In this document: positions 1-64,000 of the stretch, piece after piece | Position numbering within the stretch: the stretch's first letter is position 1 | Layout: every line of letters starts with the position of its first letter | Origin: Arenicola marina | Taxonomy: Eukaryota; Annelida; Polychaeta; Arenicolidae | Assembly (NCBI GenBank): GCA_964019135.1 | Contig: OZ025263.1 | Coordinates: 32,528,133-32,592,132 of the forward strand | DNA: 64,000 nucleotides | Reading direction: 5' to 3' | Notes under the pieces: generated by a model | Told to the model about the DNA's origin: nothing | The model's input: only the letters and a program-made list of their open reading frames with translations | Database searches by the model: none | Translations under genes and position numbers: made by a program

Positions 1-27
1 ACCCGACCACCAGTGAGTCCACAAGAG
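1..27 (+). CDS. 3' end of a repeat exon, cut by the window edge
   Basis: The first 27 bases match the last 27 of the 159-bp exon and are followed by the GTCAGT donor at 28. The penultimate codon change ACA to AGA makes the final full residue Arg instead of Thr, the T53R variant found only in the left part of the array. Confidence 0.75.
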
Positions 28-3000
28 GTCAGTGATACAACTTCATCATTTTATGTTTAAAGGAAACGTATTGTCTAGAAGGAAACTGGCGTAAAACTCT
101 AACTTCTTAAACGTCACTTTATAAGCGACATCGGCGATAATATATCGATTCTCAGCAGCTCAAAGTAGGATTGTAAGTCTGTATGCTGATTCTTTTGATA
201 AGCACGTATGGTGCAGCGTGGTATTCTCTTTCCACCATAGTGGCGAGTACGACTAGCGCAACCAGCGCCAGCACCACTGCGGAGAGCACCACCAGCTTGA
301 CAACCCCAACGACAGTCTCGGAAACCACAAGCACCGGAACCAGTGTGACGACGACAACTCCCACCACTGTAACCCCGACCACCAGTGAGTCCACAACAGG
401 TCAGTGATAAAACTTTATCATTTTATGTTTAAAGGAAACGTATTGTCTAGAATGAAACGGGCGTAAAATAAACTCTAACTTCTTAAACGTCACTTTATAA
501 GCGACATCGGCGATAATATATCGATTCGCAGCAGCTCAAAGTAGGATTGTAAGTCTGTATGCTGATTCTTTTGATAAGCACGTATGGTGCAGCGTTGTAT
601 TCTCTTTCCACCATAGTGGCGAGTACGACTAGCGCAACCAGCGCCAGCACCACTGCGGAGAGCACCACCAGCTTGACAACCCCAACGACAGTCTCGGAAA
701 CCACAAGCACCGGAACCAGTGGGACGACGACAACTCCCACCACTGTCACCCCGACCACCAGTGAGTCCACAACAGGTCAGTTGTACAACTTTATCATTTT
801 ATGTTTAAAGGAAACGTATTGTCTAGAAGGAAACGGGCGTAAAATAAACTCTAACTTCTTAAACGTCACTTTATAAGCGACATCGGCGATAATATATCGA
901 TTCTCAGCAGCTCAAAGTAGGAATGTAAGTCTGTATGCTGATTCTTTTGATAAGCACGTATGGTGCAGCGTTGTATTCTCTTTCCACCATAGTGGCGAGT
1001 ACGACTAGCGCAACCAGCGCCAGCACCACTGCGGAGAGCACCACCAGCTTGACAACCCCAACGACAGTCTCGGAAACCACAAGCACCGGAACCAGTGGGA
1101 CGACGACAACTCCCACCACTGTAACCCCGACCATCAGTGAGTCCACAACAGGTCAGTGATAAAACTTTATCATTTTATGTTTAAAGGAAACGTATTGTCT
1201 AGAATGAAACGGGCGTAAAATAAACTCTAACTTCTTAAACGTCACTTTATAAGCGACATCGGCGATAATATATCGATTCTCAGCAGCTCAAAGTAGGATT
1301 GTAAGTCTGTATGCTGATTCTTTTGATAAGCACGTATGGTGCAGCGTGGTATTCTCTTTCCACCATAGTGGCGAGTACGACTAGCGCAACCAGCGCCAGC
1401 ACCACTGCGGATAGCACCACCAGCTTGACAACCCCAACGACAGTCTCGGAAACCACAAGCACCGGAACCAGTGGCACGACGACAACTCCCACCACTGTCA
1501 CCCCGACCACCAGTGAGTCCACAACAGGTCAGTGATACAACTTTATCATTTTATGTGTAAAGGAAACGTATTGTCTAGAATGAAACGGGCGTAAAACCCT
1601 AACTTCTTAAACGTCACTTTATAAGCGACATCGGCGATAATATATCGATTCTCATCAGCTCAAAGTAGGATTGCAAGTCTGTATGCTGATTCTTTTGATA
1701 AGCACGTATGGTGCAGCGTTGTATTCTCTTTCCACCATAGTGGCGGGTACGACTAGCGCAACCAGCGCCAGCACCACTGCGGAGAGCACCACCAGCTTGA
1801 CAACCCCAACGACAGTCTCGGAAACCACAAGCACCGGAACCAGTGGGACGACGACAACTCCCACCACTGTCACCCCGACCACCAGTGAGTCCACAACAGG
1901 TCAGTGATACAACTTTATCATTTTATGTTTAAAGGAAACGTATTGTCTAGAAGGAAACGGGCGTAAAACTCTAACTTCTTAAACGTCACTTTACAAGCGA
2001 CATTGGCGATAATATATCGATTCTCAGCAGCTCAAAGTAGGAATGTAAGTCTGTATGCTGATTCTTTTGATAAGCACGTATGGTGCAGCGTAGTATTCTC
2101 TTTCCACCATAGTGGCGAGTACGACTAGCGCAACCAGCGCCAGCACCACTGCGGAGAGCACCACCAGCTTGACAACCCCAACGACAGTCTCGGAAACCAC
2201 AAGCACCGGAACCAGTGGGACGACGACAACTCCCACCACTGTCACCCCGACCACCAGTGAGTCAACAACAGGTCAGTGATACAACTTTATCATGTTATGT
2301 GTAAAGGAAACGTATTGTCTAGAATGAAACGGGCGTAAAACCCTAACTTCTTAAACGTCACTTTATAAGCGACATCGGCGATAATATATCGATTTTCAGC
2401 AGCTCAAAGTAGGATTGCAAGTCTGTATGCTGATTCTTTTGATAAGCACGTATGGTGCAGCGTTGTATTCTCTTTCCACCATAGTGGCGAGTACGACTAG
2501 CGCAACCAGCGCCGGCACCACTGCGGAGAGCACCACCAGCTTGACAACCCCAACGACAGTCTCGGAAACCACAAGCACCGGAACCAGTGGGACGACGACA
2601 ACTCCCACCACTGTCACCCCGACCACCAGTGAGTCCACAACAGGTCAGTGATACAACTTTATCATTTTATGTTTAAAGGAAACGTATTGTCTAGGATGAA
2701 ACGGGCGTAAAACAAACTCTAACTTCTTAAACGTCACTTTATAAGCGACATCGGCGATAATATATCGATTCTCATCAGCTCAAAGTAGGATTGTAAGTCT
2801 GTATGCTGATTCTTTTGATAAGCACGTATGGTGCAGCGTTGTATTCTCTTTCCGCCATAGTGGCGAGTACGACTAGCGCAACCAGCGCCAGCACCACTGC
2901 GGAGAGCACCACCAGCTTGACAACCCCAACGACAGTCTCGGAAACCACAAGCACCGGAACCAGTGGCACGACGACAACTCCCACCACTGTCACCCCGACC

Positions 3001-6000
3001 ACCAGTGAGTCCACAACAGGTCAGTGATACAACTTTATCATTTTATGTTTCAAGGAAACGTATTGTCTAGAAGGAAACGGGCGTAAAACTCTAACTTCTT
3101 AAACGTCACTTTATAAGCGACATTGGCGATAATATATCGATTCTCAGCAGCTCAATGTAGGAATGTAAGTCTGTATGCTGATTCTTTTGATAAGCACGTA
3201 TGGTGCAGCGTTGTATTCTCTTTCCACCATAGTGGCGAGTACGACTAGCGCAACCAGCGCCAGCACCACTGCGGAGAGCACCACCAGCTTGACAACCCCA
3301 ACGACAGTCTCGGAAACCACAAGCACCGGAACCAGTGGCACGACGACAACTCCCACCACTGTCACCCCGACCACCAGTGAGTCCACAAGAGGTCAGTGAT
3401 ACAACTTCATCATTTTATGTTTAAAGGAAACGTATTGTCTAGAAGGAAACTGGCGTAAAACTCTAACTTCTTAAACGTCACTTTATAAGCGACATCGGCG
3501 ATAATATATCGATTCTCAGCAGCTCAAAGTAGGATTGTAAGTCTGTATGCTGATTCTTTTGATAAGCACGTATGGTGCAGCGTGGTATTCTCTTTCCACC
3601 ATAGTGGCGAGTACGACTAGCGCAACCAGCGCCAGCACCACTGCGGAGAGCACCACCAGCTTGACAACCCCAACGACAGTCTCGGAAACCACAAGCACCG
3701 GAACCAGTGGGACGACGACAACTCCCACCACTGTAACCCCGACCACCAGTGAGTCCACAACAGGTCAGTGATAAAACTTTATCATTTTATGTTTAAAGGA
3801 AACGTATTGTCTAGAATGAAACGGGCGTAAAATAAACTCTAACTTCTTAAACGTCACTTTATAAGCGACATCGGCGATAATATATCGATTCGCAGCAGCT
3901 CAAAGTAGGATTGTAAGTCTGTATGGTGATTCTTTTGATAAGCACGTATGGTGCAGCGTTGTATTCTCTTTCCACCATAGTGGCGAGTACGACTAGCGCA
4001 ACCAGCGCCAGCACCACTGCGGAGAGCACCACCAGCTTGACAACCCCAACGACAGTCTCGGAAACCACAAGCACCGGAACCAGTGGGACGACGACAACTC
4101 CCACCACTGTCACCCCGACCACCAGTGAGTCCACAACAGGTCAGTTGTACAACTTTATCATTTTATGTTTAAAGGAAACGTATTGTCTAGAAGGAAACGG
4201 GCGTAAAATAAACTCTAACTTCTTAAACGTCACTTTATAAGCGACATCGGCGATAATATATCGATTCTCAGCAGCTCAAATTAGGAATGTAAGTCTGTAT
4301 GCTGATTCTTTTGATAAGCACGTATGGTGCAGCGTTGTATTCTCTTTCCACCATAGTGGCGAGTACGACTAGCGCAACCAGCGCCAGCACCACTGCAGAG
4401 AGCACCACCAGCTTGACAACCCCAACGACAGTCTCGGAAACCACAAGCACCGGAACCAGTGGGACGACGACAACTCCCACCACTGTCACCCCGACCACCA
4501 GTGAGTCCACAACAGGTCAGTGATACAACTTTATCATTTTATGTTTAAAGGAAACGTATTGTCTAGAAGGAAACGGGCGTAAAACTCTAACTTCTTAAAC
4601 GTCACTTTATAAGCGACATTGGCGATAATATATCGATTCTCAGCAGCTCAATGTAGGAATGTAAGTCTGTATGCTGATTCTTTTGATAAGCACGTATGGT
4701 GCAGCGTTGTATTCTCTTTCCACCATAGTGGCGAGTACGACTAGCGCAACCAGCGCCAGCACCACTGCGGAGAGCACCACCAGCTTGACAACCCCAACGA
4801 CAGTCTCGGAAACCACAGGCACCGGAACCAGTGGCACGACGACAACTCCCACCACTGTCACCCCGACCACCAGTGAGTCCACAACAGGTCAGTGATACAA
4901 CTTCATCATTTTATGTTAAAAGGAAACGTATTGTCTAGAAGGAAACTGGCGTAAAACTCTAACTTTTTAAACGTCACTTTATAAGCGACATCGGCGATGA
5001 TATATCGATTCTCAGCAGCTCAAAGTAGGATTGTAAGTCTGTATGCTGATTCTTTTGATAAGCACGTATGGTGCAGCGTGGTATTCTCTTTCCACCATAG
5101 TGGCGAGTACGACTAGCGCAACCAGCGCCAGCACCACTGCGGAGAGCACCACCAGCTTGACAACCCCAACGACAGTCTCGGAAACCACAAGCACCGGAAC
5201 CAGTGGGACGACGACAACTCCCACCACTGTAACCCCGACCACCAGTGAGTCCACAACAGGTCAGTGATAAAACTTCATCATTTTATGTTTAAAGGAAACG
5301 TATTGTCTAGAATGAAACGGGCGTAAAATAAACTCTAACTTCTTAAACGTCACTTTATAAGCGACATCGGCGATAATATATCGATTCGCAGCAGCTCAAA
5401 GTAGGATTGTAAGTCTGTATGCTGATTCTTTTGATAAGCACGTATGGTGCAGCATTGTATTCTCTTTCCACCATAGTGGCGAGTACGACTAGCGCAACCA
5501 GCGCCAGCACCACTGCGGAGAGCACCACCAGCTTGACAACCCCAACGACAGTCTCGGAAACCACAAGCACCGGAACCAGTGGGACGACGACAACTCCCAC
5601 CACTGTCACCCCGACCACCAGTGAGTCCACAACAGGTCAGTTGTGCAACTTTATCATTTTATGTTTAAAGGAAACGTATTATCTAGAAGGAAACGGGCGC
5701 AAAATAAACTCTAACTTCTTCAACGTCACTTTATAAGCGACATCGGCGATAATATATCGATTCTCAGCAGCTCAAAGCAGGATTGTAAGTCTGTATGCTG
5801 ATTCTTTTGATAAGCACGTATGGTGCAGCGTTGTATTCTCTTTCCACCATAGTGGCGAGTACGACTAGCGCAACCAGCGCCAGCACCACTGCGGAGAGCA
5901 CCACCAGCTTGACAACCCCAACGACAGTCTCGGAAACCACAAGCACCGGAACCAGTGGCACGACGACAACTCCCACCACTGTCACCCCGACCACCAGTGA

Positions 6001-9000
6001 GTCCACAACAGGTCAGTGATACAACTTTATCATTTTATGTTTAAAAGAAACGTATTGTCTAGAATGAAACGGGCGTAAAATAAACTCTAACTTCTTAAAC
6101 GTCACTTTATAAGCGACATCGGCGATAATATATCGATTCTCAGCAGCTCAAAGTAGGATTGTAAGTCTGTATGCTGATTCTTTTGATAAGCACGTATGGT
6201 GCAGCGTTGTATTCTCTTTCCACCATAGTGGCGAGTACGACTAGCGCAACCAGCGCCAGCACCACTGCGGAGAGCACCACCAGCTTGACAACCCCAACGA
6301 CAGTCTCGGAAACCACAAGCACCGGAACCAGTGGGACGACGACAACTCCCACCACTGTCACCCCGACCACCAGTGAGTCCACAACAGGTCAGTGATACAA
6401 CTTCATCATTTTATGTTTAAAGGAAACGTATTGTCTAGAAGGAAACTGGCGTAAAACTCTAACTACTTAAACGTCACTTTATAAGCGACATCGGCGATAA
6501 TATATCGATTCTCAGCAGCTCAAAGTAGGATTGTAAGTCTGTATGCTGATTCTTTTGATAAGCACGTATGGTGCAGCGTGGTATTCTCTTTCCACCATAG
6601 TGGCGAGTACGACTAGCGCAACCAGCGCCAGCACCACTGCGGAGAGCACCACCAGCTTGACAACCCCAACGACAGTCTCGGAAACCACAAGCACCGGAAC
6701 CAGTGGGACGACGACAACTCCCACCACTGTAACCCCGACCACCAGTGAGTCCACAACAGGTCAGTGATAAAACTTTATCATTTTATGTTTAAAGGAAACG
6801 TATTGTCTAGAATGAAACGGGCGTAAAATAAACTCTAACTTCTTAAACGTCACTTTATAAGCGACATCGGCGATAATATATCGATTCGCAGCAGCTCAAA
6901 GGAGGATTTTAAGTCTGTATGCTGATTCTTTTGATAAGCACGTATGGTGCAGCGTTGTATTCTCTTTCCACCATAGTGGCGAGTACGACTAGCGCAACCA
7001 GCGCCAGCACCACTGCGGAGAGCACCACCAGCTTGACAACCCCAACGACAGTCTCGGAAACCACAAGCACCGGAACCAGTGGCACCACGACAACTCCCAC
7101 CACTGTCACCCCGACCACCAGTGAGTCCACAACAGGTCAGTTGTACAAATTTATCATTTTATGTTTAAAGGAAACGTATTGTCTAGAAGGAAACGGGCGT
7201 AAAATAAACTCTAACTTCTTAAACGTCACTTTATAAGCGACATCGGCGATAATATATCGATTCTCAGCAGCTCAAAGTAGGATTGTAAGTCTGTATGCTG
7301 ATTCTTTTGATAAGCACGTATGGTGCAGCGTTGTATTCTCTTTCCACCATAGTGGCGAGTACGACTAGCGCAACCAGCGCCAGCACCACTGCGGAGAGCA
7401 CCACCAGCTTGACAACCCCAACGACAGTCTCGGAAACCACAAGCACCGGAACCAGTGGGACGACGACAACTCCCACCACTGTCACCCCGACCACCAGTGA
7501 GTCCACAACAGGTCAGTGATACAACTTTATCATTTTATGTTCAGAGGAAACGTATTGTCTAGAAGGAAACGGGCGTAAAACTCTAACTTCTTAAACGTCA
7601 CTTTATAAGCGACATTGGCGATAATATATCGATTCTCAGCAGCTCGATGTAGGAATGTAAGTCTGTATGCTGATTCTTTTGATAAGCACGTATGGTGCAG
7701 CGTTGTATTCTCTTTCCACCATAGTGGCGAGTACGACTAGCGCAACCAGCGCCAGCACCACTGCGGAGAGCACCACCAGCTTGACAACCCCAACGACAGT
7801 CTCGGAAACCACAAGCACCGGAACCAGTGGGACGACGACAACTCCCACCACTGTAACCCCGACCATCAGTGAGTCCACAACAGGTCAGTGATAAAACTTT
7901 ATCATTTTATGTTTAAAGGAAACGTATTGTCTAGAATGAAACGGGCGTAAAATAAACTCTAACTTCTTAAACGTCACTTTATAAGCGACATCGGCGATAA
8001 TATATCGATTCTCAGCAGCTCAAAGTAGGAATGTAAGTCTGTATGCTGATTCTTTTGATAAGCACGTATGGTGCAGCGTTGTATTCTCTTTCCGCCATAG
8101 TGGCGAGTACGACTAGCGCAACCAGCGCCAGCACCACTGCGGAGAGCACCACCAGCTTGACAACCCCAACGACAGTCTCGGAAACCATAAGCACCGGAAC
8201 CAGTGGCACGACGACAACTCCCACCACTGTCACCCCGACCACCAGTGAGTCCACAACAGGTCAGTGATACAACTTTATCATTTTATGTGTAAAGGAAACG
8301 TATTGTCTAGAATGAAACGGGCGTAAAACCCTAACTTCTTAAACGTCACTTTATAAGCGACATCGGCGATAATATATCGATTCTCATCAGCTCAAAGTAG
8401 GATTGCAAGTCTGTATGCTGATTCTTTTGATAAGCACGTATGGTGCAGCGTTGTATTCTCTTTCCACCATAGTGGCGGGTACGACTAGCGCAACCAGCGC
8501 CAGCACCACTGCGGAGAGCACCACCAGCTTGACAACCCCAACGACAGTCTCGGAAACCACAAGCACCGGAACCAGTGGCACGACGACAACTCCCACCACT
8601 GTAACCCCGACCACCAGTGAGTCCACAACAGGTCAGTGATAAAACTTTATCATTTTATGTTTAAAGGAAACGTATTGTCTAGAATGAAACGGGCGTAAAA
8701 TAAACTCTAACTTCTTAAACGTCACTTTATAAGCGACATCGGCGATAATATATCGATTCGCAGCAGCTCAAAGTAGGATTGTAAGTCTGTATGCTGATTC
8801 TTTTGATAAGCACGTATAGTGCAGCGTTGTATTCTCTTTCCACCATAGTGGCGAGTACGACTAGCGCAACCAGCGCCAGCACCACTGCGGAGAGCACCAC
8901 CAGCTTGACAACCCCAACGACAGTCTCGGAAACCACAAGCACCGGAACCAGTGGGACGACGACAACTCCCACCACTGTCACCCCGACCACCAGTGAGTCC

Positions 9001-12000
9001 ACAACAGGTCAGTTGTACAACTTTATCATTTTATGTTTAAAGGAAACGTATTGTCTAGAAGGAAACGGGCGTAAAATAAACTCTAACTTCTTAAACGTCA
9101 CTTTATAAGCGACATCGGCGATAATATATCGATTCTCAGCAGCTCAAAGTAGGATTGTAAGTCTGTATGCTGATTCTTTTGATAAGCACGTATGGTGCAG
9201 CGTTGTATTCTCTTTCCACCATAGTGGCGAGTACGACTAGCGCAACCAGCGCCAGCACCACTGCGGAGAGCACCACCAGCTTGACAACCCCAACGACAGT
9301 CTCGGAAACCACAAGCACCGGAACCAGTGGGACGACGACAACTCCCACCACTGTCACCCCGACCACCAGTGAGTCCACAACAGGTCAGTGATACAACTTT
9401 ATCATTTTATGTTTAAAGGAAACGTATTGTCTAGAAGGAAACGGGCGTAAAACTCTAACTTCTTAAACGTCACTTTATAAGCGACATCGGCGATAATATA
9501 TCGATTCTCAGCAGCTCGATGTAGGAATGTAAGTCTGTATGCTGATTCTTTTGATAAGCACGTATGGTGCAGCGTTGTATTCTCTTTCCACCATAGTGGC
9601 GAGTACGACTAGCGCAACCAGCGCCAGCACCACTGCGGAGAGCACCACCAGCTTGACAACCCCAACGACAGTCTCGGAAACCACAAGCACCGGAACCAGT
9701 GGCACGACGACAACTCCCACCACTGTCACCCCGACCACCAGTGAGTCCACAACAGGTCAGTGATACAACTTCATCATTTTATGTTTAAAGGAAACGTATT
9801 GTCTAGAAGGAAACGGGCGTAAAACTCTAACTTCTTAAACGTCACTTTATAAGCGACATTGGCGATAATATATCGATTCTCAGCAGCTCAATGTAGGAAT
9901 GTAAGTCTGTATGCTGATTCTTTTGATAAGCACGTATGGTGCAGCGTTGTATTCTCTTTCCACCATAGTGGCGAGTACGACTAGCGCAACCAGCGCCAGC
10001 ACCACTGCGGAGAGCACCACCAGCTTGACAACCCCAACGACAGTCTCGGAAACCACAAGCACCGGAACCAGTGGGACGACGACAACTCCCACCACTGTAA
10101 CCCCGACCATCAGTGAGTCCACAACAGGTCAGTGATAAAACTTTATCATTTTATGTTTAAAGGAAACGTATTGTCTAGAATGAAACGGGCGTAAAATAAA
10201 CTCTAACTTTTTAAACGTCACTTTATAAGCGACATCGGCGATAATATATCGATTCTCAGCAGCTCAAAGTAGGATTGTAAGTCTGTATGCTGATTCTTTT
10301 GATAAGCACGTATGGTGCAGCGTTGTATTCTCTTTCCACCATAGTGGCGAGTACGACTAGCGCAATCAGCGCCAGCACCACTGCGGAGAGCACCACCAGC
10401 TTGACAACCCCAACGACAGTCTCGGAAACCACAAGCACCGGAACCAGTGGCACGACGACAACTCCCACCACTGTCACCCCGACCACCAGTGAGTCCACAA
10501 CAGGTCAGTGATACAACTTCATCATTTTATGTTTAAAGGAAACGTATTGTCTAGAATGAAACGGGCGTAAAACCCTAACTTCTTAAACGTCATTTTATAA
10601 GCGACATCGGCGATAATATATCGATTCTCATCAGCTCAAAGTAGGATTGCAAGTCTGTATGCTGATTCTTTTGATAAGCACGTATGGTGCAGCGTTGTAT
10701 TCTCTTTCCACCATAGTGGCGGGTACGACTAGCGCAACCAGCGCCAGCACCACTGCGGAGAGCACCACCAGCTTGACAACCCCAACGACAGTCTCGGAAA
10801 CCACAAGCACCGGAACCACTGGCACGACGACAACTCCTACCACTGTCACCCCGACCACCAGTGAGTCCACAACAGGTCAGTGATACAACTTTATCATTTT
10901 ATGTTTAAAGGAAACGTATTGTCTAGAAGGAAACGGGCGTAAAACTCTAACTTCTTAAACGTCACTTTATAAACGACATTGGCGATAATATATCGATTCT
11001 CAGCAGCTCAAAGTAGGAATGTAAGTCTGTATGCTGATTCTTTTGATAAGCACGTATGGTGCAGCGTAGTATTCTCTTTCCACCATAGTGGCGAGTACGA
11101 CTAGCGCAACCAGCGCCAGCACCACTGCGGAGAGCACCACCAGCTTGACAACCCCAACGACAGTCTCGGAAACCACAAGCACCGGAACCAGTGGGACGAC
11201 GACAACTCCCACCACTGTCACCCCGACCACCAGTGAGTCAACAACAGGTCAGTGATACAACTTTATCATTTTATGTGTAAAGGAAACGTATTGTCTAGAA
11301 GGAAACGGGCGTAAAACTCTAACTTCTTAAACGTCACTTTATAAGCGACATTGGCGATAATATATCGATTCTCAGCAGCTCAATGTAGGAATGTAAGTCT
11401 GTATGCTGATTCTTTTGATAAGCACGTATGGTGCAGCGTTGTATTCTCTTTCCACCATAGTGGCGAGTACGACTAGCGCAACCAGCGCCAGCACCACTGT
11501 GGAGAGCACCACCAGCTTGACAACCCCAACGACAGTCTCGGAAACCACAAGCACCGGAACCAGTGGCACGACGACAACTCCCACCACTGTCACCCCGACC
11601 ACCAGTGAGTCCACAAGAGGTCAGTGATACAACTTCATAAAGTAGGATTGTAAGTCTGTATGCTGATTCTTTTGATAAGCACGTATGGTGCAGCGTTGTA
11701 TTCTCTTTCCACCATAGTGGCGAGTACGACTAGCGCAACCAGCGCCAGCACCACTGCGGAGAGCACCACCAGCTTGACAACCCCAACGACAGTCTCGGAA
11801 ACCACAAGCACCGGAACCAGTGGCACGACGACAACTCCCACCACTGTCACCCCGACCACCAGTGAGTCCACAACAGGTCAGTGATAAAACTTCATCATTT
11901 TATGTTTAAAGGAAACGTATTGTCTAGAAGGAAACTGGCGTAAAACTCTAACTTCTTAAACGTCACTTTATAAGCGACATCGGCGATAATATATCGATTC

Positions 12001-57000: not shown

Positions 57001-60000
57001 AGTCTGTATGTTTATTCTTTTGATAAGCACGTATGGTGCAGCGTTGTATTCTCTTTCCACCATAGTGGCGAGTACGACTAGCGCAACCAGCGCCAGCACC
57101 ACTGCGGAGAGCACCACCAGTTTGACAACCCCAACGACAGTCTCGGAAACCACAAGCACCGGAACCAGTGGGACGACGACAACTCCCACCACTGTCACTC
57201 CGACCACCAGTGAGTCCACAACAGGTCAGTGATACAACTTTATCATTTTATGTTTAAAGGAAACGTATTGTCTAGAAGGAAACGGGCGTAAAATCAACTC
57301 TAACTTCTTAAACGTCGCTTTATAAGCGACATCGGCGATAATATATCGATTCTCAGCAGCTCAAAGTAGGAATGTAAGTCTGTATGCTGATTCTTTTGAT
57401 AAGCACGTATGGTGCAGACTTGTATTCTCTTTCCACCATAGTGGCGAGTACGACTAGCGCAACCAGCGCCAGCACCACTGCGGAGAGCACCACCAGCTTG
57501 ACAACCCCAACGACAGTCTCGGAAACCACAAGCACCGGAACCAGTGGGACGACGACAACTCCCACCACTGTCACCCCGACCACCAGTGAGTCGACAACAG
57601 GTCAGTGATACAACTTGATCATTTTATGTTCAAAGGAAACGTATTGTCTAGAAGGAAACGGGCGTAAAACTCTAACTTCTTTAACGTCACTTTATAAGCA
57701 ACATCGGCGATAATATATCGATTCTCAACAGCTCAAAGTAGGATTGTAAGTCTGTATGGTGATTCTTTTGATAAGCACGTATGGTGCAGCGTTGTATTCT
57801 CTTTCCACCATAGTGGCGAGTACGACTAGCGCAACCAGCGCCAGCACCACTGCGGAGAGCACCACCAGCTTGACAACCCCAACGACAGTCTCGGAAACCA
57901 CAAGCACCGGAACCAGTGGGACGACGACAACTCCCACCACTGTCACCCCGACCACCAGTGAGTCCACAACAGGTCAGTGATACAACTTTATCATTTTATG
58001 TTTAAAGGAAACGTATTGTCTAGAATGAAACGGGCGTAAAATAAACTCTAACTTCTTAAACGTCACTTTATAAGCGACATCGGCGATAATATATCAATTC
58101 TCAGCAGCTCAAAGTAGGATTGTAAGTCTGTATGCTGATTCTTTTGATAAGCACGTATGGTGCAGCGTTGTATTCTCTTTCCACCATAGTGGCGAGTACG
58201 ACTAGCGCAACCAGCGCCAGCACCACTGCGGAGAGCACCACCAGCTTGACAACCCCAACGACAGTCTCGGAAACCACAAGCACCGGAACCAGTGGGACGA
58301 CGATAACTCCCACCACTGTCACCCCGACCACCAGTGAGTCCACAACAGGTCAGTGATACAACTTTATCATTTTATGTTTAAAGGAAACGTATTGTCTAGA
58401 ATGAAACGGGCGTAAAATAAACTCTAACTTCTTAAACGTCACTTTATAAGCGACATCGGCGATAATATATCGATTCTCAGCAGCTCAAAGTAGGATTGTA
58501 AGTCTGTATGCTGATTCTTTTGATAAGCACGTATGGTGCAGCGTTGTATTCTCTTTCCACCATAGTGGCGAGTACGACTAGCGCAACCAGCGCCAGCACC
58601 ACTGCGGAGAGCACCACCAGCTTGACAACCCCAACGACAGTCTCGGAAACCACAAGCACCGGAACCAGTGGGACGACGACAACTCCCACCACTGTCACCC
58701 CGACCACCAGTGAGTCCACAACAGGTCAGTGATACAACTTTATCATTTGATGTTTAAAGGAAACGTATTGTCTAGAAGGAAACGGGCGTAAAACTCTAAC
58801 TTCTTAAACGTCACTTTATAAGCGACATTGGCGATAATATATCGATTCTCAGCAACTCAATGTAGGAATATAAGTCTGTATGCTGATTTTTTTGATAAGC
58901 ACGTATGGTGCAGCGTTGCATTCTCTTTCCACCATAGTGGCGAGTACGACTAGCGCAACCAGCGCCAGCACCACTGCGGAGAGCACCACCAGCTTGACAA
59001 CCCCAACGACAGTCTCGGAAACCACAAGCACCGGAACCAGTGGGACGACGACAACTCCCACCACTGTCACCCCGACCACCAGTGAGTCCACAACAGGTCA
59101 GTGATACAACTTTATCATTTTATGTTTAAAGGAAACGTATTGTCTGGAAGGAAACGGGCGTAGAACAAACTCTAACTTCTTAAACGTCACTTTATAAGCG
59201 ACATCAGCGATAATATATCGATTCTCAGCAGCTCAAAGTAGGATTGTAAGTCTGTATGCTGATTCTTTTGATAAGCACGTATGGTGCAGCGTTGTATTCT
59301 CTTTCCACCATAGTGGCGAGTACGACTAGCGCAACCAGCGCCAGCACCACTGCGGAGAGCACCACCAGCTTGACAACCCCAACGACAGTCTCGGAAACCA
59401 CAAGCACCGGAACCAGTGGGACGACGACAACTCCCACCACTGTCACCCCGACCACCAGTGAGTCCACAACAGGTCAGTGATACAACTTTATCATTTGATG
59501 TTTAAGGGAAACGTATTGTCTTGAAGGAAACGGGCGTAAAACTCTAACTTCTTAAACGTCACTTTATAAGCGACATTGGCGATAATATATCGATTCTCAG
59601 CAGCTCAGTGTAGGAATATCAGTCTGTATGCTGATTCTTTTGATAAGCACGTATAGTGCAGCGTTGTATTCTCTTTCCACCATAGTGGCGAGTACGACTA
59701 GCGCAACCAGCGCCAGCACCACTGCGGAGAGCACCACCAGCTTGACAACCCCAACGACAGTCTCGGAAACCACAAGCACCGGAACCAGTGGGACGACGAC
59801 AACTCCCACCACTGTCACCCCGACCACCAGTGAGTCCACAACAGGTCAGTGATACAACTTTATCATTTGATGTTTAAAGGAAACGTATTGTCTAGAAGGA
59901 AACGGGCGTAAAACTCTAACTTCTTAAACGTCACTTTATAAGCGACATTGGCGATAATATATCGATTCTCAGCAACTCAATGTAGGAATATAAGTCTGTA

Positions 60001-63000
60001 TGCTGATTTTTTTGATAAGCACGTATGGTGCAGCGTTGTATTCTCTTTCCACCATAGTGGCGAGTACGACTAGCGCAACCAGCGCCAGCACCACTGCGGA
60101 GAGCACCACCAGCTTGACAACCCCAACGACAGTCTCGGAAACCACAAGCACCGGAACCAGTGGGACGACGACAACTCCCACCACTGTCACTCCGACCACC
60201 AGTGAGTCCACAACAGGTCAGTGATACAACTTTATCATTTTATGTTTAAAGGAAACGTATTGTCTAGAAGGAAACGGGCGTAGAACAAACTCTAACTTCT
60301 TAAACGTCACTTTATAAGCGACATCAGCGATAATATATCGATTCTCAGCAGCTCAAAGTAGGATTGTAAGTCTGTATGCTGATTCTTTTGATAAGCACGT
60401 ATGGTGCAGCGTTGTATTCTCTTTCCACCATAGTGGCGAGTACGACTAGCGCAACCAGCGCCAGCACCACTGCGGAGAGCACCACCAGCTTGACAACCCC
60501 AACGACAGTCTCGGAAACCACAAGCACCGGAACCAGTGGGACGACGACAACTCCCACCACTGTCACCTCGACCACCAGTGAGTCCACAACAGGTCAGTGA
60601 TACAACTTTATCATTTTATGTTGAACGGAAACGTATTGTCTAGAAGGAAACGGGCGTAAAACAAACTCTAACTTCTTAAACGTCACCTGATAAGCGACAT
60701 CGGCGATAATATATCGATTCTCAGCAGCTCAAAGTAGGATTGTAAGTCTGTGTGCTGATTCTTTTGATAAGCACGTATGGTGCAGCGTTGTATTCTCTTT
60801 CCACCATAGTGGCGAGTACGACTAGCGCAACCAGCGCCAGCACCACTGCGGAGAGCACCACCAGCTTGACAACCCCAACGACAGTCTCGGAAACCACAAG
60901 CACCGGAACCAGTGGGACGACGACAACTCCCACCACTGTCACCCCGACCACCAGTGAGTCCACAACAGGTCAGTGATACAACTTTATCATTTGATGTTTA
61001 AAGGAAACGTATTGTCTAGAAGGAAACGGGCGTAAAACTCTAACTTCTTAAACGTCACTTTATAAGCGACATTGGCGATAATATATCGATTCTCAGCAGC
61101 TCAATGTAGGAATATCAGTCTGTATGCTGATTCTTTTGATAAGCACGTATGGTGCAGCGTTGTATTCTCTTTCCACCATAGTGGCGAGTACGACTAGCGC
61201 AACCAGCGCCAGCACCACTGCGGAGAGCACCACCAGCTTGACAACCCCAACGACAGTCTCGGTAACCACAAGCACCGGAACCAGTGGGACGACGATAACT
61301 CCCACCACTGTCACCCCGACCACCAGTGAGTCCACAACAGGTCAGTGATACAACTTTATCATTTTATGTTTAAAGGAAACGTATTGTCTAGAATGAAACG
61401 GGCGTAAAATAAACTCTAACTTCTTAAACGTCACTTTATAAGCGACATCGGCGATAATATATCGATTCTCAGCAGCTCAAAGTAGGATTGTAAGTCTGTA
61501 TGCTGATTCTTTTGATAAGCACGTATGGTGCAGCGTTGTATTCTCTTTCCACCATAGTGGCGAGTACGACTAGCGCAACCAGCGCCAGCACCATTGCGGA
61601 GAGCACCACCAGCTTGACAACCCCAACGACAGTCTCGGAAACCACAAGCACCGGAACCAGTGGGACGACGACAACTCCCACCACTGTCACCCCGACCACC
61701 AGTGAGTCCACAACAGGTCAGTGATACAACTTTATCATTTGATGTTTAAGGGAAACGTATTGTCTTGAAGGAAACGGGCGTAAAACTCTAACTTCTTAAA
61801 CGTCACTTTATAAGCGACATTGGCGATAATATATCGATTCTCAGCAGCTCAATGTAGGAATATCAGTCTGTATGCTGATTCTTTTGATAAACACGTATAG
61901 TGCAGCGTTGTATTCTCTTTCCACCATAGTGGCGAGTACGACTAGCGCAACCAGCGCCAGCACCACTGCGGAGAGCACCACCAGCTTGACAACCCCAACG
62001 ACAGTCTCGGAAACCACAAGCACCGGAACCAGTGGGACGACGACAACTCCCACCACTGTCACCCCGACCACCAGTGAGTCCACAACAGGTCAGTGATACA
62101 ACTTTATCATTTTATGTTTAAAGGAAACGTATTGTCTAGAAGGAAACGGGCGTAGAACAAACTCTAACTTCTTAAACGTCACTTTATAAGCGACATCAGC
62201 GATAATATATCGATTCTCAGCAGCTCAAAGTAGGATTGTAAGTCTGTATGCTGATTCTTTTGATAAGCACGTATGGTGCAGCGTTGTATTCTCTTTCCAC
62301 CACAGTGGCGAGTACGACTAGCGCAACCAGCGCCAGCACCACTGCGGAGAGCACCACCAGCTTGACAACCCCAACGACAGTCTCGGAAACCACAAGCACC
62401 GGAACCAGTGGGACGACGACAACTCCCACCACTGTCACCCCGACCACGAGTGAGTCCACAACAGGTCAGTGATACAACTTTATCATTTTATGTTTAAAGG
62501 AAACGTATTGTCTAGAATGAAACGGGCGTAAAATAAACTCTAACTTCTTAAACGTCACTTTATAAGCGACATTGGCGATAATATATCGATTCTCAGCAGC
62601 TCAAAGTAGGATTGTAAGTCTGTATGCTGATTCTTTTGATAAGCACGTATGGTGCAGCGTTGTATTCTCATTCCACTATAGTGGCGAGTACGACTAGCGC
62701 AACCAGCGCCAGCACCACTGCGGAGAGCACCACCAGCTTGACAACCCCAACGACAGTCTCGGAAACCACAAGCACCGGAACCAGTGGGACGACGACAACT
62801 CCCACCACTGTCACCCCGACCACCAGTGAGTCCACAACAGGTCAGTGATACAACTTTATCATTTTATGTTTAAGGGAAACGTATTGTCTAGAAGGAAACG
62901 GGCGTAGAACAAACTCTAACTTCTTAAACGTCACTTTATAAGCGACATCAGCGATAATATATCGATTCTCAGCAGCTCAAAGTAGGATTGTAAGTCTGTA

Positions 63001-63967
63001 TGCTGATTCTTTTGATAAGCACTATGGTGCAGCGTTGTATTCTCTTTCCACCATAGTGGCGAGTACGACTAGCGCAACCAGCGCCAGCACCACTGCGGAG
63101 AGCACCACCAGCTTGACAACCCCAACGACAGTCTCGGAAACCACAAGCACCGGAACCAGTGGGACGATGACAACTCCCACCACTGTCACCTCGACCACCA
63201 GTGAGTCCACAACAGGTCAGTGATACAACTTTATCATTTTATGTTTAAAGGAAACGTATTGTCTAGAAGGAAACGGGCGTAGAACAAACTCTAACTTCTT
63301 AAACGTCACTTTATAAGCGACATCAGCGATAATATATCGATTCTCAGCAGCTCAAAGTAGGATTGTAAGTCTGTATGCTGATTCTTTTGATAAGCACGTA
63401 TGGTGCAGCGTTGTATTCTCTTTCCACCACAGTGGCGAGTACGACTAGCGCAACCAGCGCCAGCACCACTGCGGAGAGCACCACCAGCTTGACAACCCCA
63501 ACGACAGTCTCGGAAACCACAAGCACCGGAACCAGTGGGACGACGACAACTCCCACCACTGTCACCCCGACCACCAGTGAGTCCACAACAGGTCAGTGAT
63601 ACAACTTTATCATTTTATGTTTAAAGGAAACGTATTGTCTAGAATGAAACGGGCGTAAAATAAACTCTAACTTCTTAAACGTCACTTTATAAGCGACATT
63701 GGCGATAATATATCGATTCTCAGCAGCTCAAAGTAGGATTGTAAGTCTGTATGCTGATTCTTTTGATAAGCACGTATGGTGCAGCGTTGTATTCTCATTC
63801 CACTATAGTGGCGAGTACGACTAGCGCAACCAGCGCCAGCACCACTGCGGAGAGCACCACCAGCTTGACAACCCCAACGACAGTCTCGGAAACCACAAGC
63901 ACCGGAACCAGTGGGACGACGACAACTCCCACCACTGTCACCCCGACCACCAGTGAGTCCACAACAG
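1..63967 (+). CDS. Giant mucin-like Ser/Thr-rich repeat protein, internal part of a multi-exon gene
   Basis: The gene is read as 171 complete 159-bp exons and one 3' exon remnant, joined through phase-1 introns. Every internal exon is open, none has an indel, and the last base G of each joins TG of the next to make Val. The product in this window is about 9,070 residues of a 53-residue repeat, about 70% Ser plus Thr, with scattered Pro (TTPTT, TTPTT, VTPTT), no Cys and almost no charge. Such PTS domains in mucins are heavily O-glycosylated and extended; a secreted or surface role is inferred from composition only. Neither terminus is present, so signal peptide, membrane anchor and von Willebrand or cysteine-knot domains cannot be assessed. 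Alternatives are an array of small secreted-peptide genes or a non-coding satellite grown from a mucin exon. No gene symbol is justified. Confidence 0.72.
241..5259 (+). CDS. Repeat exons 1-14 (left subfamily)
   Basis: Each exon is 159 bp; starts are 241, 617, 993, 1369, 1741, 2113, 2485, 2861, 3233, 3605, 3981, 4357, 4729 and 5101. Residue changes from the reference: exon 241 G36V; 993 T48I; 1369 E15D; 1741 S3G; 2485 S11G; 3233 T53R; 4729 S31G. Silent variants typical of the left end are GTA for V44 and GGC for G36. The edge exon to exon 3 corresponds to exons 9-12 at an offset of 3,364 bp. The intron before 2113 carries TAG at 2091-2093, in frame with the following exon, which blocks any unspliced reading from the upstream ATG in that unit. 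Confidence 0.75.
617..775 (+). CDS. Reference repeat exon (159 bp, 53 codons, phase 1-1)
   Basis: This copy defines the residue numbers used in other entries: V1 (split codon), A2, S3 to T53. The repeat has 26 Thr, 11 Ser, 4 Ala, 3 Pro, 3 Val, 3 Glu, 2 Gly and 1 Leu. Sub-motifs are TTPTT at 21-25 and 39-43 and TPTT at 45-48. Pro next to or near Thr is the context preferred by many polypeptide GalNAc-transferases. Thr codons are mixed (12 ACC, 6 ACA, 4 ACG, 4 ACT), so the repeat is not a simple codon microsatellite. The exon starts after AG at 615-616 and ends before GT at 776-777. An in-frame internal GTGAGT at 761-766 is a second possible donor that would shorten the exon to 144 bp. No N-glycosylation sequon exists in the consensus. 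Confidence 0.78.
776..781 (+). other. 5' splice donor (AACAG|GTCAGT)
   Basis: GTCAGT follows the exon in every copy I read, while the next bases vary (GATAC, GATAA, TGTAC, GGTAC, TGTGC). The match to the U1 consensus is good except C at +3. A second donor-like GTGAGT lies 15 nt upstream in the exon. Confidence 0.72.
887..899. repeat. Short intronic inverted repeat CGATA-ATA-TATCG
   Basis: A perfect 5-bp inverted repeat around a 3-nt spacer occurs in most introns. It is degraded in several copies (ATATGTCG, GAGATAATATATCG, AACATATCG) and deleted with the middle of the 98-bp intron. No function can be assigned. Confidence 0.6.
938..951 (+). other. Candidate branch sites CTGAT and TTGAT
   Basis: Two matches to yUnAy place the branch adenosine 51 and 42 nt before the intron's last base. 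Both remain in the 98-bp intron at 11,620-11,717, whereas the better-looking CTAAC about 138 nt upstream is deleted there. The TTTAT variant that replaces CTGAT in the TATGTTTATTC subfamily also fits the consensus. Confidence 0.45.
978..992 (+). other. 3' splice acceptor with pyrimidine tract
   Basis: CTCTTTCCACCATAG precedes the exon. Variants across copies keep the final AG (CCGCCATAG, CCATCATAG, CCACTATAG, and CCACAG before 62,306 and 63,433). The nearest upstream AG is GTGCAG, 24 nt before the exon. Confidence 0.75.
5477..10127 (+). CDS. Repeat exons 15-27 (left subfamily)
   Basis: Starts are 5477, 5853, 6229, 6601, 6977, 7353, 7725, 8101, 8473, 8849, 9225, 9597 and 9969, each 159 bp. 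Changes: 7725 T48I; 8101 T30I; 8473 S3G; 9969 T48I; the rest match at protein level. Introns after 5477, 6977 and 8849 begin GTCAGTTG and lack the immediate stop. Exons 15-17, with introns marked by GTTGTGC, GGGCGCAAAA, CAAAGCAGG and TTAAAAGAAACG, recur as exons 45-47 at an offset of 11,105 bp. Exons 14-16 and 18-20 form a related four-unit pattern at 1,500 bp. Confidence 0.75.
10345..11876 (+). CDS. Repeat exons 28-32, around the short intron
   Basis: Starts are 10345, 10717, 11089, 11461 and 11718. Changes: 10345 T8I; 10717 S3G and S35T; 11461 A14V and T53R. Exons 10717 and 11089 repeat the pair 1741 and 2113 at an offset of 8,976 bp, including the TAG upstream of the second (11067-11069). 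The last two exons are only 257 bp apart because the intron between them lost about 115 bp. Confidence 0.75.
11620..11717 (+). other. Shortened 98-bp intron (internal deletion)
   Basis: After the donor and the start of the TACAACTTCAT segment the sequence jumps directly to AAAGTAGGATTG, so the middle of the intron is missing (about 115 bp against a 372-bp unit). The donor, both proximal branch candidates, the pyrimidine tract and the acceptor remain. The inverted repeat, TATA-like stretch, AATAAA site and distal CTAAC are gone. Only this copy of 171 has a deletion of this size. Confidence 0.85.
12090..17492 (+). CDS. Repeat exons 33-47 (left subfamily)
   Basis: Starts are 12090, 12466, 12842, 13214, 13586, 13962, 14334, 14710, 15082, 15458, 15834, 16210, 16582, 16958 and 17334, each 159 bp. 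Changes: 12090 P23S; 12466 S11R and T52I; 13962, 14710 and 16210 T53R. The others match the reference peptide. Exons 14334 and 15082 share a silent ACA at T22. Introns after 12090, 13586, 15458, 15834 and 16582 start GTCAGTTG. The T53R endings and GTCAGTTG introns do not occur to the right of this block. Confidence 0.75.
14121..15616 (+). repeat. Two-unit higher-order repeat, 2 x 748 bp
   Basis: Exons 14334 and 14710 with their introns recur as 15082 and 15458. Shared rare markers are GTCCAGAAGG and AACTACTTAAAC in the intron, the silent ACA at T22, and the TGG variant just before the acceptor. The second copy's last exon ends in Thr with a GTCAGTTG intron, while the first ends in Arg, so the join lies inside that unit. 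Confidence 0.85.
17493..21335 (+). repeat. Five-unit (1,876 bp) and nested two-unit (748 bp) higher-order repeats
   Basis: Exons 17710, 18086 and 18462 correspond to 19586, 19962 and 20338 at 1,876 bp, sharing GACGGCGACAAC, the silent ACA at T48 and TTATTAGCG introns. Exons 19962 and 20338 are then repeated as 20710 and 21086 at 748 bp, sharing S6R, P41S and the intron markers GATCCTTTTATG, AAACGTGTTG and CTAGGAGG. S6R is absent in the 18086 copy, so the 748-bp duplication followed the 1,876-bp one. Confidence 0.82.
17710..22745 (+). CDS. Repeat exons 48-61 (TATGTTTATTC subfamily appears)
   Basis: Starts are 17710, 18086, 18462, 18838, 19210, 19586, 19962, 20338, 20710, 21086, 21462, 21838, 22210 and 22587. 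Changes: 17710 and 19586 A10T and T38A; 18838 and 21838 T48A; 19962 and 20710 S6R; 20338 P41S; 21086 P41S and S51P; 22210 T40N; 22587 G36A and P41H. T40N gives Asn-Pro-Thr, which is not a usable N-glycosylation site. A new intron subfamily with TATGTTTATTC and TTATTAGCG begins here. Confidence 0.75.
22959..28367 (+). CDS. Repeat exons 62-76
   Basis: Starts are 22959, 23335, 23711, 24088, 24464, 24836, 25213, 25585, 25961, 26337, 26709, 27081, 27457, 27833 and 28209. Changes: 22959 S11G; 23335 and 25961 G36E; 24464 T48A and S51F; 24836 T43N, which creates an Asn-Val-Thr sequon; 25213 T38A; 26709 P46S; 27081 A7G and S16R; 27457 A7G; 28209 S35I. Several introns have the one-base-longer ACTCTTAAC form. 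Exons 23335 and 23711 recur as 25961 and 26337 at 2,626 bp, with GATTCTGAGC and the ATATGTCGATT variant. Confidence 0.75.
28581..35103 (+). CDS. Repeat exons 77-94
   Basis: Starts are 28581, 28957, 29329, 29705, 30081, 30454, 30826, 31202, 31574, 31950, 32321, 32697, 33073, 33445, 33821, 34197, 34569 and 34945. Changes: 29329, 31950 and 32321 G33E; 29705, 31202, 32697 and 33821 V26L with T48S; 30081 and 33073 P41S with T45I; 34197 the same plus T18A; 30454 S35I; 30826 S19R, T22N and V26L; 31574 A10V, P23Q and P41L; 34569 A10V; 34945 S19R. Introns after 30081, 33073 and 34197 start GTCAGTGG, so they lack the immediate TGA. This is the most divergent stretch of the array at protein level. Confidence 0.74.
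32480..34727 (+). repeat. Three-unit higher-order repeat, 2 x 1,124 bp
   Basis: Exons 32697, 33073 and 33445 recur as 33821, 34197 and 34569. Shared markers are ATTCACATCAGC, GGATCGTAAG, V26L with T48S, the TTATTATTTTATTTTT intron, P41S with T45I, and the GTCAGTGG intron. The first two of the three also resemble 29705 and 30081 at an offset of 2,992 bp, an older copy. Confidence 0.87.
35321..39231 (+). CDS. Repeat exons 95-105
   Basis: Starts are 35321, 35697, 36073, 36449, 36825, 37201, 37577, 37949, 38325, 38701 and 39073. Changes: 35321 A10V and E50D; 35697 T48S; 36073 and 37201 G33E; 36449 and 37949 T43N (Asn-Val-Thr sequon); 37577 G36R, P41S and T52A; 38325 P46A; 39073 A10V. E50D alters the internal GTGAGT to GTGACT while the terminal GTCAGT is kept. 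Exons 36073 and 37201 form a 1,128-bp repeat; 36449 and 37949 are 1,500 bp apart. Confidence 0.75.
38484..42981 (+). repeat. Five-unit higher-order repeat (1,877 bp) with shuffled flanks
   Basis: Exons 39449, 39822 and 40198 correspond to 41326, 41699 and 42075, sharing the 3-nt intron deletion, GATAACATATCG, GTAATTCTG, AAACCTATTG and CAGCAGCCCAATG. Flanking units are reused out of order. 38701 and 40950 share the rare CGATACTCAGC (2,249 bp apart); 39073 and 42447 share A10V with the AAACACG intron variant (3,374 bp apart). Confidence 0.83.
39449..43357 (+). CDS. Repeat exons 106-116
   Basis: Starts are 39449, 39822, 40198, 40574, 40950, 41326, 41699, 42075, 42447, 42823 and 43199. Changes: 39449 and 41326 T48S; 39822 and 41699 A10V, E28A and T43P; 40574 V1A, where the first exon base changes T to C so the junction codon becomes GCG; 42447 A10V; 43199 T43N (Asn-Val-Thr sequon). 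The introns after 39449 and 41326 lack three bases (GATACTTTATT). Confidence 0.75.
43575..53475 (+). CDS. Repeat exons 117-143
   Basis: Starts are 43575, 43951, 44323, 44700, 45076, 45452, 45828, 46204, 46576, 46948, 47325, 47701, 48077, 48453, 48829, 49201, 49573, 49949, 50325, 50697, 51073, 51449, 51821, 52197, 52569, 52941 and 53317. Changes: 43951 T48A; 45076 and 47701 T43N with E50V; 46204 and 48829 P41S; 46576 and 49201 T24M with T48A; 51073 T39I; 53317 P46S. The E50V copies convert the internal GTGAGT to GTGTTT. T43N gives Asn-Val-Thr. Confidence 0.75.
43862..53603 (+). repeat. 19-unit higher-order repeat, first copy with internal expansion (9,742 bp)
   Basis: This is the longer copy of a 19-unit block. 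Removing one of the two 2,625-bp internal copies leaves 7,117 bp, the exact length of the next block. Units 43951 and 44323 match 53693 and 54065; units 49949 to 53317 match 57066 to 60434. The crossover lies near 53,6xx, because the intron before 53693 matches the end of the block and its exon matches the start. Confidence 0.9.
44482..49731 (+). repeat. Seven-unit higher-order repeat, 2 x 2,625 bp
   Basis: Exons 44700 to 46948 recur as 47325 to 49573, one for one. Shared rare markers in order are CAGCAGCCCAATG, GTGTTTCC (E50V) with GTAAATCTG, ATAAGCCACATTGG, TTGTATAGAATG, GCGCGACC, AAAAGTCACTTT, CCAATGACAG (T24M) and GCGTTTTATTC. One visible difference is GCG against GCA for A14 in the second exon. 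Confidence 0.92.
53604..60720 (+). repeat. 19-unit higher-order repeat, second copy (7,117 bp)
   Basis: Nineteen units repeat the preceding block in the same order, with shared private markers such as CATATTATCT, GTGCAGACTTG, CAATTCTCAGC, GTTGCATTC, TGTCTGGAAGG, AGTGTAGGAATATCAG and CACCTGATAAGC. A difference is AAACGTCAC before exon 56318, where both earlier copies have AAAAGTCAC. The near-identity suggests a recent duplication. Confidence 0.92.
53693..60592 (+). CDS. Repeat exons 144-162
   Basis: Starts are 53693, 54065, 54442, 54818, 55194, 55570, 55946, 56318, 56690, 57066, 57442, 57814, 58190, 58566, 58938, 59314, 59686, 60058 and 60434. Changes: 53693 T48A; 54818 T43N with E50V; 55946 P41S; 56318 T24M with T48A; 58190 T39I; 60434 P46S. 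The others match the reference peptide. Confidence 0.75.
60810..63967 (+). CDS. Repeat exons 163-171, right edge of window
   Basis: Starts are 60810, 61182, 61558, 61930, 62306, 62682, 63057, 63433 and 63809. Changes: 61182 E28V and T39I; 61558 T13I; 63057 T38M and P46S. The intron before 60810 has GTG in place of the usual upstream ATG, and the intron before 63057 lacks one G (AGCACTATGG). Both would harm a mini-gene reading but not a spliced exon. After 63967 the donor and 33 intron bases run to the window edge. Confidence 0.75.
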
Positions 63968-64000
63968 GTCAGTGATACAACTTTATCATTTTATGTTTAA
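62089..64000 (+). repeat. Three-unit higher-order repeat of 1,127 bp, second copy cut by the edge
   Basis: Exons 62306 and 62682 recur as 63433 and 63809. The first of each pair has the CCACCACAG acceptor and the second has CTCATTCCACTATAG. The unit between them (63057) would be expected again just beyond the window. The one-base shortfall from 1,128 is the G missing in the intron before 63057. Confidence 0.85.

What the first reader, a model, noticed from the sequence alone, without database searches (positions are those of the whole stretch)
1..64000. Mucin-like gene with at least 171 tandem symmetric exons, one PTS repeat per exon
Each 53-residue Ser/Thr-rich repeat sits in its own 159-bp phase 1-1 exon. 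In the well-known gel-forming mucins (for example MUC2, MUC5B) the PTS repeats lie mostly inside one giant exon, so an intron between every repeat over more than 64 kb is atypical. The window alone would give about 9,070 residues and reaches neither end of the gene.
Basis: partly seen in the sequence, partly recalled or inferred. Interest (0 to 1): 0.85.

Follow-up and report, generated by a model that had tools for sequence, protein, structure and literature searches.

The report
Giant mucin-like gene, one-repeat exons
An unnamed animal's chromosome carries what looks like a working gene for a giant slime-type protein, built from well over a thousand near-identical small exons that each code for one sugar-bearing repeat; if read as one gene it would make one of the largest proteins known.

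Summary
The window has 171 complete 159-bp exons, open in one frame in 171 of 171 and in the other two in 0 of 171; spliced, it reads 9,071 codons without a stop. It is part of a larger locus: 264 kb of fetched sequence holds 706 units, and 0 of 702 standard exons have a stop. The array is estimated at about 485 kb and 1,290 units. Next to it lies an array of diverged exons, also 159 bp and phase 1-1, whose last exon reads in frame into a 2,769-bp exon ending in another phase-1 donor. Exons of the two arrays have dN/dS 0.05-0.07, so the peptide is selected; this is not idle satellite DNA. Upstream lie open frames of up to 24,171 codons with third-position excess. Best reading: a giant mucin-like gene that grows by whole-exon duplication. 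No VWD match was found nearby, so it is not filed as a gel-forming mucin. One repeat per exon has a small precedent, chicken Muc13. Transcription, single-gene status and both gene ends are unproven.

The parts
1..64000 (+). part of tandem array A: units of about 374 bp, each one 159-bp phase 1-1 exon plus one intron
1..27 (+). 3' end of an exon cut by the window start; donor after base 27
   Evidence: (donor position, spliced translation), sequence
241..399 (+). first complete exon; full codons begin at base 243 (phase 1)
400..616 (+). typical 217-bp intron, GTCAGT...CCACCATAG
11461..11619 (+). intact exon in front of the shortened intron
   Evidence: (listed there one base low)
11620..11717 (+). 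98-bp intron: 119-bp internal deletion, both splice sites kept
63809..63967 (+). last complete exon (171st); its intron runs past the window end

Best explanation
The window is an interior stretch of the coding region of a giant mucin-like gene (Pro/Thr/Ser-rich product, presumably O-glycosylated and secreted or on the cell surface). Shown from sequence: each unit is one symmetric phase 1-1 exon of 159 bp coding a 53-residue repeat, plus one intron; the exon peptide is under purifying selection; array A (estimated 1,290 units, C18 about 32.328-32.813 Mb) is followed by array B of diverged 159-bp exons (about 234 by span, 32.813-32.9595 Mb) and by a 2,769-bp PTS exon C (32959770-32962538), on one strand, and the last B exon reads in frame into exon C. 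Inferred: the exons are spliced into one mRNA; the array grows and shrinks by unequal crossing-over of whole exon-intron units, which never shifts the frame because exon ends share a phase, so repeat number can drift while the peptide is held; a unit that loses a splice site can be skipped without frame loss. The product would be a long unfolded Thr/Ser brush that binds water as mucus, coat or glue. A+B+C would be about 81,700 residues by my arithmetic.
For: Exon reading: (171 of 171 window exons open in one frame, 0 of 171 in the others; 0 of 702 with a stop over 264 kb; GT 704 of 704, AG 706 of 706). Indels in 705 units: 18 kinds in the intron, 16 not multiples of three; three kinds in the exon, two of 3 bp and one of 16 bp that removes the exon end and donor. 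Diversity: exon pi 0.018, introns 0.038-0.039, donor positions 1, 2, 6 and the AG invariant in the 647 introns of 213 or 217 bp. Between arrays (52 codons, consensus or single sequences): A-B1 dS 2.3, dN 0.11; A-B2 dS 1.9, dN 0.13; B1-B2 dS 0.255, dN 0.018. B exons measured: 8 of 8 are 159 bp and phase 1-1. In-frame link from last B exon to exon C, exon C length divisible by three, phase-1 donor GTGAGT at its end. Block duplication: identical runs of 11 units at lag 19 and 10 units at lag 21; 548 distinct units of 705. Control: a minus-strand PTS array at 33.026-33.059 Mb has in-frame TGAs and, in its one 2-kb sample, no clear third-position excess (0.110/0.087/0.129, p 0.05), so PTS DNA here does decay when not selected.
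Against: No transcript data. The A-B junction, and the stretch between the upstream open frames and A, were not read. Left of A's first unit, itself broken by a deletion, 658 bp show no unit or PTS frame by eye. Within array A rare variants show no deficit of amino-acid changes (N:S 54:14 among singletons, against 337:134 possible); a lower ratio appears only among commoner variants (65:23, 21:10, 0:3), and distinct variants per possible change are 0.415 N and 0.373 S. Low diversity is not confined to the exon: its last 59 bp are at about 0.028 and the last 36 bp of the intron at about 0.018. Absence of stops alone is weak: only 6 single-base changes could make one. One of 705 units has lost its donor and would hit stops if its intron were kept. 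Third-position excess in exon C is modest (0.215/0.148/0.335 in 1 kb).
Confidence: 0.78

Rival explanations
1. The locus is a cluster of several mucin-like genes (upstream giant frames; array A; array B plus exon C), each with its own start and end, rather than one gene.
For: No unit or PTS frame seen in the 658 bp left of A's first unit; the upstream open frames lie in three genome frames and are separate (my arithmetic on positions); a detached A-type array exists at 28.61-28.66 Mb.
Against: Same strand, same phase; A and B exon peptides are homologous (42 of 52 residues); B reads in frame into C; by span and count A appears to abut B.
Confidence: 0.35
2. Array A is a macrosatellite seeded by a mucin exon; most units are never expressed and look open only because they were copied recently.
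For: Units are alike (mean 14 differences in about 376); rare variants in A show no deficit of amino-acid changes; a detached copy array at 28.6 Mb.
Against: 16 of 18 intron indel kinds would shift a frame; none lies wholly inside an exon in 705 units, about 11.7 kinds expected at the intron rate by my arithmetic. GT and AG invariant. Array B, with saturated synonymous divergence from A, keeps peptide, exon length and phase. A nearby PTS array does show stops.
Confidence: 0.1
3. The number of units is inflated by assembly error in a repeat.
For: Not testable here without reads; two runs of 8 or more consecutive identical units occur (11 and 10 units).
Against: 548 of 705 units differ from one another; no N in 264 kb; the array lies inside a 38-Mb contig.
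Confidence: 0.1
4. The exons are alternatives (Dscam-like), one or a few chosen per transcript.
For: Symmetric exons would permit it; Lang et al. 2006 raise control of repeat number by splicing for chicken Muc13.
Against: Near-identical exons would give little diversity. Partial skipping that varies length remains possible.
Confidence: 0.07

Closest known systems
Chicken Muc13 (PMC1552070: abstract, passages and section 8 seen)
   Same: PTS domain coded by many exons, one repeat per exon, exons nearly identical
   Different: at least 12 repeats of 20 aa there; an estimated 1,290 of 53 aa here; Muc13 has a SEA and a transmembrane domain, here no SEA match in the whole genome (a test without a positive control)
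Gel-forming mucins (MUC2, MUC5AC, MUC5B)
   Same: Thr/Ser/Pro-rich tandem repeats
   Different: their repeats lie in a large exon (passages of PMC13345508 and PMC1552070); they carry VWD domains, and no VWD match was found in C18:32.1-33.1 Mb
Human MUC12 (PMC13345508, passages seen)
   Same: very long repeat region in a single giant exon; the upstream frames here look alike in that respect
   Different: up to 23,080 aa, said to contain the largest exon of the human genome; here one upstream frame alone has 24,171 codons, stop to stop
Titin/connectin (PMC12198301, passages seen)
   Same: giant protein grown by internal duplication
   Different: 363 exons and 38,138 aa, folded Ig and FN3 domains; here an estimated 1,500 exons of PTS repeats
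Giant bacterial frames, e.g. Velamenicoccus archaeovorus 39,678 aa (PMC10066038, passages seen)
   Same: extreme predicted length, surface role proposed
   Different: bacterial open reading frame, not an exon array

Membership tests
mucin-like (PTS) proteins in the broad sense | tandem repeats rich in Pro, Thr, Ser | tested here: met
   76% T+S+P in the window's 171 exons; 75.5% in the consensus repeat
mucin-like (PTS) proteins in the broad sense | dense O-glycosylation | not testable with these tools
   composition only
mucin-like (PTS) proteins in the broad sense | signal peptide or membrane anchor | not tested
gel-forming mucins (MUC2/MUC5 type) | VWD domains | tested here: not met
   68 VWD matches in the genome, none within C18:32.1-33.1 Mb, nearest listed C18:35121702 (exon-wise search, 150 of 257 candidates scored, so a weak exon could be missed)
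gel-forming mucins (MUC2/MUC5 type) | PTS repeats in one large exon | tested here: not met
   one repeat per exon in arrays A and B; the upstream frames and exon C are of the large-exon kind
SEA-type membrane mucins (Muc13 type) | SEA domain | tested here: inconclusive
   0 matches genome-wide, 17 of 17 candidates scored, but the search rang in no control genome
SEA-type membrane mucins (Muc13 type) | one PTS repeat per exon (chicken form) | tested here: met
chitin-binding (peritrophic-type) mucins | CBM_14 domains | tested here: inconclusive
   150 of 382 candidates scored; none of the 150 matches is on C18

The most novel reading that the evidence does not exclude
A single gene of about 800 kb (C18 about 32.165 to beyond 32.9625 Mb) with about 1,500 coding exons and an upstream exon of up to 72.5 kb, giving a mucin of about 130,000 residues: 49,960 codons in five upstream frames, about 68,400 in A, 12,400 in B, 923 in C. 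That would exceed every protein length and exon number that I saw reported, with some 1,500 introns spliced from each transcript.
Probability: 0.33. Interest if true: 0.95.

Novelty: new variant of a known kind. Interest (0 to 1): 0.82.

Why it matters
If transcribed as read, it pushes known limits of exon number, exon size and protein length in animals severalfold, and offers a natural test of how splicing handles more than a thousand near-identical introns and how repeat number is controlled. It also shows how a coding repeat can expand like a satellite without harm when exon ends share a phase. Length differences between individuals would be easy to measure.

Tried and rejected
Accidental satellite: rejected on indels, splice sites and dN/dS. 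Gel-forming mucin of the VWD type: no VWD match near. Chitin-binding mucin: none of the 150 CBM_14 matches is on C18 (150 of 382 scored). Naming the organism: not achieved; haemocyanin beta-sandwich gave 0 matches (no control rang); CpG observed/expected is 0.84-1.22 in five loci and the window, which I take only as a hint of an invertebrate. Absence of stops as proof: dropped as weak, since only 6 changes in the exon can make one. Pfam on the A and upstream repeats: 0 families for 2 proteins. One search used a frame and coordinates one base off; superseded. Literature: the listings showed no report of a mucin with hundreds of one-repeat exons; only open-licence papers are held, and of most I saw the listing only. 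PMC11573180 (huge proteins) and PMC11237159 (frog glue, exon duplication) were looked at in passages and did not change the reading.

Full report
What is in the window. The window lies at C18:32528133-32592132 of an unnamed 867-Mb genome in 762 contigs. It is tandem repeat from base 2 to 64000. Anchored on both splice sites it holds 171 complete exons, 171 of 171 of them 159 bp, plus the end of one more at bases 1-27; 171 of 171 are open in the phase-1 frame and 0 of 171 in each other frame; spliced, it reads 9,071 codons without a stop. The consensus repeat is ASTTSATSASTTAESTTSLTTPTTVSETTSTGTSGTTTTPTTVTPTTSESTT plus a Val codon split by the intron; 48 peptides occur in the window.

It is much longer than the window. 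A further 200 kb around it makes 264 kb with 706 acceptors, 0 N and no unit spacing above 377 bp. Of 705 exons measured, 702 are 159 bp, two are 156 bp and one has lost its donor; 0 of 702 have a stop. Of 20 two-kilobase samples, the 6 from 32342133 to 32782133 hold the same array. A 31-base piece of the exon, which finds 706 of 706 units in the fetched part, has 1,424 forward and 29 reverse matches in the genome with up to 3 mismatches. Part of the forward ones lie in a detached array at 28.614-28.662 Mb (about 129 by span, not counted one by one) and one at 31.33 Mb; since one search lists only 100 places, more may lie elsewhere. So array A has an estimated 1,290 units. Span agrees: from the first, broken unit at 32328158 to the first listed B exon at 32813180, at 374.26 bp a unit, gives about 1,296. 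The middle and right parts of A outside the 264 kb were only sampled.

What follows on the 3' side. Samples at 32.83, 32.88 and 32.93 Mb hold a related exon. In them 8 of 8 exons measured are 159 bp and phase 1-1, two per unit of about 1,248 bp, with GTAAGT donors (sequence). Listed matches run from 32813180 to 32959472 (150 of 1,745 candidates scored), which is about 117 units or 234 exons by span. The last B exon is followed by a 296-bp intron and by exon C, which continues the frame. Exon C is 2,769 bp, divisible by three, lies in one 939-codon open frame and ends ACAG|GTGAGT in phase 1 at 32962538. The next exon was not seen in the following 1.16 kb.

What precedes it. Three samples at 32.19, 32.24 and 32.29 Mb are open end to end, 666 codons each, with a TTTPTTTQTTTPTTTETTTQ repeat. 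A protein search gave plus-strand open frames of 7,048, 24,171, 9,038, 5,449 and 4,254 codons for matches between 32165314 and 32321282 (stop to stop, so ends may include intron; 150 of 50,031 candidates scored). In the three samples, repeats 60 bases apart differ at codon positions 1, 2, 3 by 0.028-0.063, 0.043-0.104 and 0.372-0.392; at the best-matching lag the figures are 0.035-0.059, 0.050-0.099 and 0.204-0.363. That is strong selection on the protein, shown for 6 kb of this stretch. Whether these frames splice to A is unknown. The three middle frames share one genome frame (my arithmetic), so a lone in-frame stop between the 24,171 and 9,038 frames is possible; I could not read that junction.

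Is it coding or copied junk? Four tests. First, indels in 705 units: the intron shows 18 kinds, 16 of them not multiples of three; the exon shows two 3-bp deletions and one 16-bp deletion that takes the exon end and donor. At the intron rate about 11.7 frame-shifting kinds would be expected in the exon (my arithmetic, equal rates assumed; introns are richer in simple runs, which may raise theirs). Second, splice sites: donor positions 1, 2 and 6 and the AG do not vary in the 647 introns of 213 or 217 bp, which average 0.038-0.039. Third, divergence between A and B exons: dN/dS 0.048 and 0.068, and 0.069 between the two B exons; 31 of 42 and 30 of 43 A-B differences fall at third positions (52 codons, consensus A against single B sequences, dS near saturation). 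Fourth, a control: the minus-strand PTS array at 33.026-33.059 Mb has in-frame TGAs inside 3 of 147 listed matches and frames of 802-3,860 codons between stops, and in its one sampled 2 kb differs by 0.110, 0.087 and 0.129 by codon position (p 0.05, positions not independent). Against: among rare variants within A the ratio of amino-acid to silent changes is not low (54:14 singletons, then 65:23, 21:10 and 0:3 with rising frequency; possible changes 337:134 plus 6 stops), and diversity changes gradually rather than at the exon edge. So selection on single recent changes in A is weak or slow, as one may expect when one repeat among a thousand matters little, while the peptide is held over the long run. 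Exon C shows a smaller third-position excess (0.215/0.148/0.335).

How it most likely works. Because the exons start and end in phase 1, units can be gained or lost by unequal exchange without a frameshift, and a unit with a damaged splice site (one of 705) can be skipped. Identical runs of 11 units at lag 19 and of 10 at lag 21 are traces of block duplication. The repeat would form a Cys-free Thr/Ser brush. Splicing into one mRNA, secretion, glycosylation and a role in mucus, coat or glue are inferred.

Compared with what is known. One PTS repeat per exon is published for chicken Muc13 (at least 12 repeats of 20 aa, EST support, and an unpublished zebrafish case; section 8 of PMC1552070). So the kind is known and the scale is new. 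Titin has 363 exons and 38,138 residues (PMC12198301, passage); MUC12 reaches 23,080 residues (PMC13345508, passage); a bacterial frame of 39,678 residues is reported (PMC10066038, passage); PKZILLA-1 is given as 4.7 MDa (PMC12194139, passage). Larger bacterial predictions exist as far as I recall, from no call. A+B+C here would be about 81,700 residues, with the upstream frames about 131,700 (my arithmetic on estimates). No VWD match was found in the surrounding megabase.

Noticed in passing
G000 C18:33026326-33058765 (minus strand; L045): Another PTS array (STTVSTTATTTPTTTE, 48-bp unit) interrupted by in-frame TGAs and without clear third-position excess in its one sample: probably a decaying mucin-like gene.
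   Followed up: partly
G000 C18:28614016-28662273 (L049, L050): Detached A-type exon array 3.7 Mb away on the same strand; best long matches of two sampled pieces to the main array are 95.3-95.7% identical.
   Followed up: partly
G000 C1:9722508-9822339: 62 of the 150 CBM_14 matches listed lie here, mostly about 1.4 kb apart on one strand, the first inside a 1,576-codon open frame: a second tandem-exon giant gene candidate.
   Followed up: no
G000, places not listed; and C18:31334795: 29 reverse-strand copies of the A exon 31-mer somewhere in the genome, and a lone forward copy at C18:31334795.
   Followed up: no
L060 140-1300 (C18:32962539-32963699): The intron after exon C looks by eye like a C-rich degenerate minisatellite.
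   Followed up: no
L061 1-950 (C18:32327500-32328449): Left of array A lies, by eye, another degenerate minisatellite-like stretch; the first A unit is broken by a deletion that fuses exon to intron.
   Followed up: partly
L029, L031, L047, L048: Sampled 2-kb stretches around the locus hold other repeats, open over 75-234 codons; the region is repeat-rich.
   Followed up: no
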